Assembly (NCBI GenBank): GCA_022450045.1 | Contig: JAKURD010000005.1 | Coordinates: 98,024 to 162,023, forward strand | DNA length: 64,000 bases | Direction of reading: 5' to 3' | From: Gracilimonas sp. | GTDB taxonomy: Bacteria > Bacteroidota > Rhodothermia > Balneolales > Balneolaceae | In this document: positions 32,655 to 64,000 of the stretch, piece by piece | How positions within the stretch are numbered: the stretch's first letter is position 1 | How the letters are laid out: the number at the start of each line of letters is the position of its first letter | The notes under the pieces: generated by a model | What the model was told of the DNA's origin: nothing | Databases searched by the model: none | Seen by the model: the letters and a program-made list of their open reading frames with translations, nothing else | Made by a program: the position numbers and the translations under genes

Positions 32655-33009
32655 AAAGTGAGTTCGAGATAAAGAATGTTAGAATAGCTGCAAGATCCAC
32701 CTGACAGATACCACGTCTGATGGATGGGGCTGATCGATGATACAGACGCAGAATGCTGGATTAGGATACGAACTGAACATGGTGTCCTAATCAAGCAATC
32801 GGTCAGATGGACTTGGAGCCATCGGACCGGGAGGTAGATTAAAGAACCACGAATTCGATCTGATGGATTACCCATTTGATCGATGGATTAGGCCCCTGAA
32901 GGAATACATAGAGGAAGATCAGGCCAAGGTTCCCCAAATCAAACAATAGGTCAGACAGACCTGGGGCCGTCAGGCTGGCTCGATTCCAATAGATCATATT
33001 CAGCTTAAA
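32655..33009 (+). repeat. Degenerate copy 1 of the AACGTGAGTTC miniature element
   Basis: The first ~78 bp, from the AAAGTGAGTTCGAGATAA end, closely match the left part of the 35464-35642 element over 76 bp. The right end is not clean (CATATTCAGCTTAAAG instead of the AACGTGAGTTC inverted repeat). Inside, an element of about 39 bp with GGTCAGAYRGACYTGGRGCC occurs twice (32789-32827 and 32937-32975) and again, shortened, in the 35.5-kb copy. No gene is seen here. It looks like a decayed or recombined copy. Confidence 0.6.
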
Positions 33010-33297: not shown

Positions 33298-33444
33298 CCT
33301 CTCAGATGTTACCGATAATTGGGGCGTATCATATAAATATGGTTTGGGTTTTTAGGGGAACATTTTAGAGTAGTGAATATAATTTCATTCTAACCTAACG
33401 TGAGTTCTATTAGACTTCCCTTGACTTGTCAAAGTAGATAAACT

Positions 33445-33641
33445 GGTTATTTTTACCTAATAACCAGCCAGCCACAGAAAGGCTAAACGTGAGTTCAGAG
33501 CATAAAGACTCTACATCTCGAATGAGCCCCTGTGGCTGATTTACTTCTATTACTTCATTCTAAATAGCATCCCAGTCCTTGCCTTCAAAGACAAACAGAC
33601 TACTAATAGAATCAGAAGCAGTAATAGTAAGCTGGTTGATT
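33445..33641 (+). ncRNA. Candidate IS110 bridge RNA (seekRNA)
   Basis: Three structures can be drawn in order. First, a 5' hairpin GGTTAT/ATAACC (33445-33465). Second, a stem CAGCCACAG/CTGTGGCTG (33469-33477, 33530-33538) with inner stems GGCT/AGCC and AGAG/CTCT, leaving an internal loop. Third, a stem CTATTAC/GTAATAG (33547-33553, 33621-33627) with cap AGTC/GACT. Loop 2 strands are AACGTGAGTTC (33486-33496) and ATCTCGAA (33515-33522), matching the target AACGTGAGTTCGAGAT. Loop 3 strands are ATAGCAT (33564-33570) and CTAATAGAAT (33603-33612), matching the element's own right and left ends. This is the known bridge-RNA plan of 5' stem, target loop, donor loop. The RNA ends are not defined. Confidence 0.8.
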
Positions 33642-33669
33642 ACTTCGAACTCTAAAATCATCACTTTTT

Positions 33670-34694
33670 ATGGATACTTCAACTTTGCTTTCCGTTGTGG
33701 ATTGTTACGTAGGTATTGACGTTTCCAAGTCTTGGTTAGACTGTTATTTACGCCCGAAAGGAACACATATATGCACAGATAATACCACAGAAGGATTTTA
33801 ACACATACAAGATTGGCTTATCAATCAAGGTTGTCGCCCTCAAACACCGTTGTGTGTTTGGAAAATACAGGGATCTATGATGATCAGCTGCTGCAGGTCA
33901 TGCATCAGGCAGGCTGGATATGTGCCGTAGAACATACCCGGGTGCTGGAAAAAGTGACTCCTCAACACCATCGTAAGGATGATGGGTTTGATGCGGCTAA
34001 ACTGGCCGAATATGGCTACCGGTACCTGGATGAGTTACACCTATTTCGTCCTACCCGTCGGGTCATCAAGGGCCTTCGGCAATTGTTTAATGAGCGTCGC
34101 CGGTTAGTCGGCCAACGCGCTTCGGTAAAAACAAAACAGACGCAATCGCGTCAATTAACGGTTACCAGTAGCCTTGTCGAGCAAAGCTGGCAGGCTCAAA
34201 TGAATTGTTACAATCACCAAATACAAGCTATAGAACAGCGAATACGTGATTTGATTCACGCTCATGCTCCCATACAACAATACGATGAGGTACTGCAACG
34301 TATCCCTGGAGTGGGTGAGGTGACCTCCTGGATGTGGATCATTCAATTTTATGGAGAGAGCCAACTAGATGCAAGAAGCATTGCCTCCCGGTTTGGATTT
34401 GCTCCTCACACCTATCGCTCAGGAAGTTCAGCACATGGAAAAACGCGCTCTTCCGGTCATGGGGTTTCCCAAATGAGACAGTATATGAGCATGGCCGTAC
34501 GCTCGGCTTGTACGCATTGTAATAAGTTTCGATCCTATAAAGAGCAGAAAGAAATAGAGGGCAAGAATTGGCCTGTTATACGAAATAACACCATTAATAA
34601 GCTTATTAAAATTATGTGTGCGATATGGAATAGTAAGTCCCCATATCAAAAAAATCACACATCCCGATTTGACCAACAAAAAAATGCAGCTTAA
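33670..34694 (+). pseudogene. IS110-family DEDD transposase, inactivated
   Basis: The start ATG 33670 gives DCYVGIDVSKSWLDCYLRPKGTH, the first catalytic Asp region. A TAA at 33799-33801 interrupts what reads as GF-stop-HIQDWLINQG, and about 30 bp later a single-base loss shifts the frame. The remainder continues as NTVVCLENTGIYD (Glu), KDDGFDAAKLAEYG (Asp-Asp) and the C-terminal domain with RIPGVGEVTSWMW and FGFAPHTYRSGSSAHGKT (catalytic Ser region). Two independent lesions argue against programmed frameshifting. Confidence 0.88.
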
Positions 34695-34904
34695 AACTTG
34701 ATAAAGTCATAGCATTCGAGATAAGAACTAAGTTAAAAGGATAAAAATGGATGCGTGTGGTCATTCCCGTGGAAACGGGAATCTAATGGTTGCTATTACT
34801 TCCGTATTCGATACCTGACCAGCCATAAGATTTCGGGCATTCGCCGCGAAATGACCATTCAACGTACTCAACAGATGGTCTTTATATCGAATTCACGTTA
34901 ACCT

Positions 34905-35463: not shown

Positions 35464-35642
35464 AACGTGAGTTCGAGATAAAGAATGTTAAAATAGCTAT
35501 TAGATCCATCTGACGGATACCCCGTCTAATGGATAGGGGCTGAATAAAGGTGATAAACTGAATGAAAACGCTCAGACGGACTTTAAGCCGTCAGGCCGTA
35601 ACTCAAAGGGTTTGACAAGGATGATTATATTGAACTCACGTT
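35464..35642 (+). repeat. Miniature inverted-repeat element, copy 2 (intact)
   Basis: 179 bp bounded by perfect inverted repeats AACGTGAGTTC (35464-35474) and GAACTCACGTT (35632-35642). Inside are two imperfect hairpins: ATCCATCTGACGG with CCGTCTAATGGAT, and GACGG with CCGTC (35575-35590 region). No coding capacity. Its left end, AACGTGAGTTCGAGAT, is exactly the sequence that the IS110 guide strands match. It ends 34 bp before the histidine kinase start and could carry part of its promoter. No clear target duplication is seen. Confidence 0.8.
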
Positions 35643-63504: not shown

Positions 63505-64000
63505 GAATACTATGACTAAATCAAGTGGATTAGGCTGATTTTTTATATTTCCTGATCATTTTTTGAGTGTGCTCCGGATCATACGCTGCCTGGTTATTCC
63601 ACATGGCACAATACAGACGGAGTAGTTTATTGATGATGTTGTTAATGGCAACCAGTTCGTGTTTCCCCTCGGCAAGTTTCTGCTCGTAGTACTCGTAGTA
63701 CTCGTGGTAGTGCGGGTGGTGGTACGCCACACTGCGGGCTGGCTGATGCATCCATCGCCGCATCTCGGAGTTCCCGTGACCAGAGGACCTGTCGGGGCTT
63801 TTTACCGAACTTCCAGAGCGTCGCCCATGGGGAGCAAATCCAAATCGGGAAGAGATTTTTCGGGCATTCAATTGGTTTTGCCCTGCAAAAAGGGTTAGCC
63901 AAAACCGTCCGGTTACCGGACCAATTTCGGGAGCCGTCTTCATGGTTTGGTGGCGCTACCAGAGCACCGGGTCTTGGCGAATCAACGCGTCCATTGTCTG
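63505..64000 (-). mobile_element. IS110-group element, 3' part (continues beyond the window)
   Basis: Right end AGTCATAGTATTC, read on the minus strand, at about 63505; then GCAAGGAGAAGG of the host. It matches the right end of the other IS110 copy (AGTCATAGCATTC) at 12 of 13 bases, with the same 24-bp distance from the transposase stop. The rest of the element lies past the window edge. Confidence 0.75.
63530..64000 (-). pseudogene. IS110-family transposase, C-terminal part, with in-frame stop
   Basis: The C-terminal domain reads KTAPEIGPVTGRFWLTLF, QLNARKISSRFGFAPHGRRSGSSVKSPDRSSGHGNSEMRRW (catalytic Ser region) and NNIINKLLRLYCAMWNN. It is homologous to the copy at 33.7 kb. A TAG at 63956-63958 interrupts the upstream frame, where it continues DALIRQDPVLW-stop-RHQTMKTAP. 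The gene is therefore probably broken, unless translation restarts at ATG 63943. A short repeat of Tyr/His/Glu codons (YHEYYEYYE) is seen near the middle. Confidence 0.75.

What the first reader, a model, noticed from the sequence alone, without database searches (positions are those of the whole stretch)
33469..33538. IS110 leader RNA whose target loop matches the end of the miniature element it occupies
In the candidate bridge RNA, the internal loop closed by CAGCCACAG/CTGTGGCTG has a 5' strand AACGTGAGTTC (33486-33496) and a 3' strand ATCTCGAA (33515-33522, reverse complement TTCGAGAT). Together they spell the target AACGTGAGTTCGAGAT. That 16-mer is present intact at 35464-35479, the left end of a 179-bp miniature element, and nearly so at 32655. 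The IS itself sits precisely there: the left flank ends AACGTGAGTTC and the right flank begins (TC)GAGATAAG. Published bridge RNAs of IS110 elements guide insertion this way. What is unusual here is guidance to a repeat terminus, which would give a mobile element an abundant, non-essential home.
Basis: partly seen in the sequence, partly recalled or inferred. Interest (0 to 1): 0.9.

Follow-up and report, generated by a model that had tools for sequence, protein, structure and literature searches.

The report
RNA-guided jumping gene in repeat tip
A bacterial jumping gene of a known RNA-guided kind carries a guide RNA whose reading loop spells the tip of a small repeated DNA element, and it sits exactly in that tip; this fits known biology, with a neat new kind of address.

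Summary
An IS110-type element (33408-34715) lies inside a 193-bp miniature inverted-repeat element (MITE). Joining its flanks gives a whole MITE, 95% identical to a sibling and bordered by the 5-bp repeat AACCT. The leader upstream of the transposase gene folds as a two-loop bridge RNA; its target loop spells AACGTGAGTTC + TTCGAGAT, the MITE's left tip.

Relatives test the idea. In Gracilimonas mengyeensis a 67%-identical element with an unbroken frame and nearly the same guide sits in the same tip of a different MITE. Of ten genomes of the genus, only these two are rich in the tip (88 and 43 places; others 0-3). For 12 elements (the window's and 11 relatives), loops match their own flanks (mean 14.5 of 18) better than other groups' flanks (8.3); the true pairing scored highest of 5,040. 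Donor loops fit too.

So the mechanism is well supported by comparison, untested by experiment. Two corrections: the window's transposase gene is broken (stop plus frameshift), so this copy is probably dead; and homing to repeats is published for this family (REP, attC, Tn21 ends). New here: a MITE tip as the address, one of several targets within one clade.

The parts
33408..34715 (+). IS110-type element, 1308 bp, left end TATTAGAC..., right end ...GTCATAGCAT
   Evidence: Ends read by motif in the window element and relatives; joining the flanks restores a whole MITE
33406..33407 (+). core TC at the left junction
34716..34717 (+). core TC at the right junction
33397..33407 (+). left 11 bp of the interrupted MITE, AACGTGAGTTC
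34718..34899 (+). rest of the interrupted 193-bp MITE, ending in the inverted end (reverse complement AACGTGAATTCGATAT)
   Evidence: joined element 95% identical to L102, 193 bp
33392..33396 (+). AACCT, left copy of the MITE's target duplication
34900..34904 (+). AACCT, right copy of the MITE's target duplication
33462..33637 (+). candidate bridge RNA body: AACCAGC 33462-33468 pairs with GCTGGTT 33631-33637 and encloses the two guide loops in the family fold (the window's own minimum-energy fold pairs the 5' arm locally instead); transcript ends not known
33469..33538 (+). target-binding stem-loop
33486..33496 (+). left target guide AACGTGAGTTC
33515..33522 (+). right target guide ATCTCGAA (reverse complement TTCGAGAT)
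33563..33570 (+). donor guide AATAGCAT, matches the right end CATAGCAT at 7 of 8
33601..33610 (+). donor guide TACTAATAGA, matches the reverse complement of core + left end at 8 of 10
33670..33801 (+). 5' part of the transposase frame (VGIDVSK motif), ends in an in-frame TAA at 33799-33801
33813..34694 (+). 3' part of the transposase frame in another reading frame: part of DEDD_Tnp_IS110, and Transposase_20
34698..34703 (+). TTGATA, would be the -35 box of a circle-junction promoter (17-bp spacer once the ends are joined)
   Evidence: function inferred
33411..33416 (+). TAGACT, would be the -10 box of that promoter
   Evidence: function inferred
35464..35642 (+). empty 179-bp MITE with the exact 16-bp target at its left tip

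Best explanation
This is an IS110-type insertion sequence of the bridge-RNA kind. Its leader RNA has a target loop whose two strands specify the left tip of an abundant MITE (AACGTGAGT-TC-GAGAT) and a donor loop that specifies its own two ends. The recombinase, guided by this RNA, joined a circular form of the element to one MITE tip at the TC core. Shown by sequence: position and borders, the MITE target, the RNA structure, guide-flank and donor-end matches, and an independent insertion of a relative at the same tip. Inferred: RNA expression, binding to the recombinase, the circle and the chemistry. The window copy has since decayed in its transposase gene.
For: Joined flanks make a 193-bp MITE, 95% identical to sibling L102 and bordered by AACCT on both sides. 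G. mengyeensis L016: same tip in another MITE of 183 bp with an AAAT duplication, other surroundings, frame without stops. Tip with up to 1 mismatch: 88 and 43 places in those two genomes, 0-3 in the other 8 of 10 of the genus, reversed control 0 in all 10. Guide-by-flank matrix of 12 elements: own mean 14.5 of 18, 116 cross-group cells mean 8.3, largest 13; true pairing unique best of 5,040 permutations over 7 representatives (left side alone 1 of 5,040, right side alone 4 of 5,040). Donor guides match own ends in 12 of 12 at 7 of 8 (right end) and 7-8 of 10 (left end), changing with them between groups. Structure: 36 pairs, 98.0% of cells paired, 14 pairs changed on both sides, 0 of 500 shuffles as high on those measures. 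Homologous to IS621 and ISCro4 transposases, E about 1e-25. Junction promoter boxes in 13 of 13 rows. One later relative, L149, has GCCTGAA at the expected place of its right guide, matching its right flank TTCAGGC.
Against: No experiment. Loop limits for one search were read by eye after the flanks had been printed. Weak cases: L044 (group B) left side 5 of 10, total 11, within the range of cross cells (largest 13); L053 right side 3 of 8, total 12; L050 and L044 have right flanks cut by the contig end. Rfam gave no match at gathering score. The D-group alignment gave an unfavourable covariation term (+2.2; 7 of 44 pairs changed on both sides), and 'further pair types' was reached by 29 of 500 shuffles. 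In group C the left junction reads TT, not TC, in 4 of 4. The window's transposase frame is broken and there is only one copy in the genome.
Confidence: 0.9

Rival explanations
1. The target match is a by-product: the leader carries a captured piece of MITE end with no guiding role, and the IS entered the MITE through protein recognition or chance.
For: The genome holds 88 copies of the tip, so MITE fragments are plentiful and nested insertions are likely.
Against: The two loop strands lie in the positions where relatives carry other sequences that match their own, different targets; only a bipartite 11 + 8 nt match is present, divided by a hairpin, one strand in reverse complement; two insertions in two species share the exact position.
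Confidence: 0.05
2. The G. mengyeensis and window insertions are one ancestral insertion inherited by both, so they count as one event.
For: The IS copies are related (67% amino acid identity) and the guides nearly identical.
Against: The two occupied MITEs differ in length (193 and 183 bp) and in interior sequence, have different flanking duplications (AACCT; AAAT) and different surroundings.
Confidence: 0.04
3. The RNA acts mainly as a regulator of the transposase (leader or small RNA) and the guide match is secondary.
For: For ISPpu9, an element in REP sequences, the abstract start in the search listing reports small RNAs that regulate the transposase gene (PMC8450116).
Against: Both target and donor guides fit their DNA; regulation does not predict this. 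The two roles may coexist.
Confidence: 0.03

Closest known systems
IS621 (IS110 family, E. coli), bridge RNA system
   Same: Homologous recombinase (E 6e-26); leader RNA upstream of the gene with a target loop and a donor loop; 2-bp core; target in a repeated intergenic sequence, REP (PMC11208160, passages seen)
   Different: Core TC rather than CT; target is the terminal inverted repeat of a MITE; right target guide here matches 7 bp including the core; host is a Gracilimonas-like bacterium; window copy broken
ISEc21 seekRNA (IS110 type) and ISPa11, ISKpn4, ISPst6 (IS1111 type)
   Same: RNA-guided choice of site; targets include REP and attC (PMC11187229, passages seen); natural change of guide between related elements (ISEc11 and ISXne4) is described there
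   Different: IS1111-type elements have the long non-coding region downstream of the gene and subterminal inverted repeats; here the region is upstream, as in the IS110 type
IS4321 / IS5075 (IS1111 family) in Tn21-family ends
   Same: Targets the terminal inverted repeat of another mobile element (title in the reference list of PMC11187229; the paper itself is not held)
   Different: IS1111 type; the host element is a large transposon, not a MITE
ISPpu9, ISPpu10, ISPa11, ISRm19 in REP sequences
   Same: IS110-family elements found at a fixed position in repeats: 7 of 7, 7 of 7, 6 of 6, 4 of 4 copies in the paper's table (PMC1525189, passages seen)
   Different: Targets are REP palindromes; published before guide RNAs were known

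Membership tests
IS110 family, IS110 type (bridge RNA elements) | DEDD RuvC-like domain and Transposase_20 domain | tested here: met
   Window open frame: PF01548 39.9 bits, PF02371 43.2 bits, both above cut-off; L016: 70 and 44 bits
IS110 family, IS110 type (bridge RNA elements) | Long non-coding region upstream of the transposase gene | tested here: met
   About 260 bp between left end 33408 and frame start 33670
IS110 family, IS110 type (bridge RNA elements) | Structured RNA with two guide loops | tested here: met
   no Rfam match at gathering score
IS110 family, IS110 type (bridge RNA elements) | Target loop matches left and right flanks | tested here: met
   Window 10 of 10 left and 7 of 8 right; family matrix
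IS110 family, IS110 type (bridge RNA elements) | Donor loop matches the element's own ends | tested here: met
   Window 7 of 8 and 8 of 10
IS110 family, IS110 type (bridge RNA elements) | Same dinucleotide core at both junctions | tested here: met
   TC / TC in the window and L016; left junction TT in 4 of 4 group C relatives (there the right-end motif itself required TTC)
IS110 family, IS110 type (bridge RNA elements) | Promoter formed at the circle junction | tested here: met
   TTGAnn-17-TAGACT in 13 of 13 rows by sequence (TTAGAC was part of the motif used to find left ends); activity not tested
IS110 family, IS110 type (bridge RNA elements) | RNA bound by the recombinase; circle and recombination seen | not testable with these tools
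   needs experiment
IS1111 type | Long non-coding region downstream of the gene | tested here: not met
   Stop codon at 34694, right end at 34715
Active, self-moving element (state, not family) | Unbroken transposase frame in the window copy | tested here: not met
   In-frame TAA at 33799 and a change of frame before the open 3' part; L016 has no stops inside
MITE | Short, terminal inverted repeats, many copies | tested here: met
   31 of 40 fetched loci hold an inverted pair of ends (2 mismatches or fewer each) within 420 bp
MITE | Target-site duplications | tested here: met
   22 of 39 pairs have identical 4- or 5-bp flanks, against 105 of 1,464 cross-locus pairings; 35464-35642 itself shows none
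MITE | An autonomous partner transposon with the same ends | not tested
   No dedicated search; none stood out in the hit list

The most novel reading that the evidence does not exclude
One clade of IS110 elements in this bacterial family is repeatedly re-aimed, by changes in its RNA target loop, at whatever repeat is common in its host: MITE tips, integron attC-like sites, palindromes and other intergenic repeats. The MITE tip is read asymmetrically (the end that fits the right guide is used in 2 of 2 cases), and some G. mengyeensis MITEs also carry a second clade guide's target inside, making a MITE a shared landing pad that several guides have converged on.
Probability: 0.4. Interest if true: 0.6.

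Novelty: new member of a known kind. Interest (0 to 1): 0.45.

Why it matters
It is a clean natural case for RNA-guided insertion outside the model elements: guide, donor loop, target, empty sites and an independent second insertion can all be read from sequence. It shows that a mobile element can be addressed by RNA to the tip of another mobile element, and the clade offers natural pairs of guide and target for recombinase engineering. It also makes testable how such elements change address over evolution.

Tried and rejected
Rejected: captured MITE fragment without a role (relatives carry other sequences at the same loop positions that match their own flanks); one inherited insertion (different MITEs and surroundings); IS1111 type (region upstream, not downstream).

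Led nowhere or went against the broad reading: Rfam search, 0 matches at gathering score. The attC-like target of group C is not repeated as a string: 2 matches in six genomes against 3 reversed controls. Integron integrases above cut-off were in 9 of 9 genomes searched, also those without a group C element, and lay on the contig of an element only in G016 (about 3.9 kb from one, about 15 kb from a partial one), so the attC label for group C rests mainly on sequence likeness recalled from knowledge. The group D2 target of G063 is not repeated: 2 places against 4 controls. Group B palindromes are fewer in G021, which bears the IS (8 strand matches, 4 sites), than in G022, which does not (31). 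The D1 target is common also in genomes without a D1 element found (G022 46, G026 17) and only 6 in G021. The D4 target (G068) was not tested. The stricter claim that the hits are MITE ends uses (2 mismatches); the 38 of 41 allows 3 mismatches, which by my own estimate chance alone would give in roughly 4 of 10. The donor scan picked other places in several rows (RE side for L025, L026, L060, L056; LE side for L044, L026); the aligned positions were then scored. The left side of the later relative L149 could not be tested because no left-end motif was found. Translation was in a wrong frame. The reading that MITEs lack an autonomous partner was not searched.

Full report
Location. The window is part of contig C45 of genome G000. 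A relative's record is Gracilimonas mengyeensis DSM 21985; G022, whose contig C2 has the same length and the same element and flanks, is in the window's genus, so the host is probably a Gracilimonas species (inference).

Anatomy. The element runs 33408-34715. Left of it stands AACGTGAGTTC, right of it TCGAGATAAG. Removing it in a script gives a 193-bp element with inverted ends, 95% identical to L102 and at least 86% to ten of the 39 MITE pairs compared, flanked by AACCT on both sides. So the IS split one end of an existing MITE. The occupied end fits the 16-base guide reading fully; the MITE's other end differs at 2 of 16.

The MITE. AACGTGAGTTC occurs 50 times in G000 and its reversed control never. 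I fetched stretches for 41 of the 50; 4 more are in the window and 5 were not fetched. Of the 40 stretches, 31 hold a pair of inverted ends with at most 2 mismatches each within 420 bp. Of 39 pairs, 22 have identical 4- or 5-bp flanks, against 105 of 1,464 cross pairings. Several interior types share the same tips. With one mismatch allowed, the 16-base tip is found at 88 places in G000, 43 in G022 and 0 to 3 in the other eight genomes of the genus.

The RNA. The target stem-loop folds with z = -4.95, the 231-nt leader with z = -3.90. In an alignment of seven relatives a shared fold has an outer stem, a target loop and a donor loop; 98.0% of cells pair, 14 of 36 pairs changed on both sides, and none of 500 shuffles reaches this, though 29 of 500 reach the number of further pair types. 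Four of the seven are close relatives and the structure comes from the same alignment. A second alignment of five more distant members gave a two-loop fold too, but with an unfavourable covariation term.

Guides against flanks. For 12 elements the loop strands were compared with every element's flanks. Own totals out of 18 were 17, 18, 11, 14, 16, 16, 12, 13, 13, 14, 15 and 15 (mean 14.5); 116 cross-group cells averaged 8.3 with a largest of 13. Over seven representatives the true pairing was the single best of 5,040. The weak ones are L044 and L053. Loop limits were drawn by eye with the flanks known. A later relative in another family, L149, has a 7-base right-guide match at the expected place; an 8-base match was absent, its left side could not be tested.

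Donor loop and promoter. At aligned positions the donor guides match the right end at 7 of 8 in 12 of 12 and the left end at 8 of 10 in 9 and 7 of 10 in 3 of 12; differences between groups (TATT, TGTT, TTTT at the left end; GCAT, GTAT at the right) are followed by the RNA. Joining the ends gives TTGAnn, 17 bases, TAGACT in 13 of 13 rows. The seekRNA paper says that abutted ends create a promoter in this family (PMC11187229, passages).

Second insertion. L016 in G. mengyeensis sits in the same tip of a 183-bp MITE with an AAAT duplication, elsewhere. Its transposase frame is unbroken and matches the IS621 and ISCro4 transposases of solved structures.

State of the window copy. The frame beginning at 33670 stops at 33799; the rest is open in another frame from 33813. 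The leader occurs once in the genome, and other IS110 proteins there are at most 45% identical over part of their length. This copy is most likely a fossil.

Clade targets. Group B (G021) sits in CCCGA....TCGGGA palindromes; group C (G010, G014, G016, G020) in an attC-like site; D1 (G021, G023) at CTCCTCGCAATGAC, D3 (G067) at ACTCCCCTCAAGGGGA. Repetition is clear for A, D1 in G023 (38 places, control 0) and D3 (71 in G067, control 7); weak for B and for D1 in G021 (6, control 1); absent for D2 and for the exact C string; not tested for D4. So homing to repeats is common in the clade, not universal.

Comparison with what is known. Mechanism and family are those of IS621-like bridge RNA elements and IS110-type seekRNA elements (PMC11208160, PMC11187229, passages seen). 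REP targets were catalogued in 2006 (PMC1525189, passages), and an IS1111-family precedent for targeting transposon ends is known by title. Literature searches with bridge RNA, IS110, seekRNA, MITE and terminal inverted repeat terms listed no paper whose title or listed abstract start describes a MITE tip as an IS110 target; I saw only listings for most of them, and only open-licence papers are held. I file this as a new member of a known kind.

Noticed in passing
window 63554-63955 (-): Part of a second IS110 transposase, 45% identical over residues 157-287, at the contig end; its right end GTCATAGTAT is followed by TCGCAAGGAG.
   Followed up: no
window 32655-32670: A further copy of the MITE tip with one mismatch, continuing like the 35464 element; its other end was not found.
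   Followed up: partly
G022 MITE loci L071, L081, L083: 4 of 11 G. mengyeensis MITEs examined carry, inside, a sequence within 2 mismatches of the D1 target CTCCTCGCAATGAC, so one MITE offers sites for two guides of the clade.
   Followed up: partly
L018-L021, L041 (G010, G014, G016, G020): Group C elements sit in attC-like sites; in G016 an integron integrase above cut-off lies about 3.9 kb from one of them.
   Followed up: partly
L053 (G010): Right target guide no longer matches its flank (3 of 8) while the left still does (9 of 10): guide drift or a change of address in progress.
   Followed up: no
G021 contigs C8, C25, C29, C37, C39: Group B left guide CCGAGTGTG is one base out of step with its palindromic targets; the fit is mainly on the right side.
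   Followed up: no
genome G000: MITE ends come in several interior types (AAAGAATGTT, AAGAACTAAG, AAAGACCATC, AATTATCCTC) combined in different pairs, as if ends were exchanged between copies.
   Followed up: no
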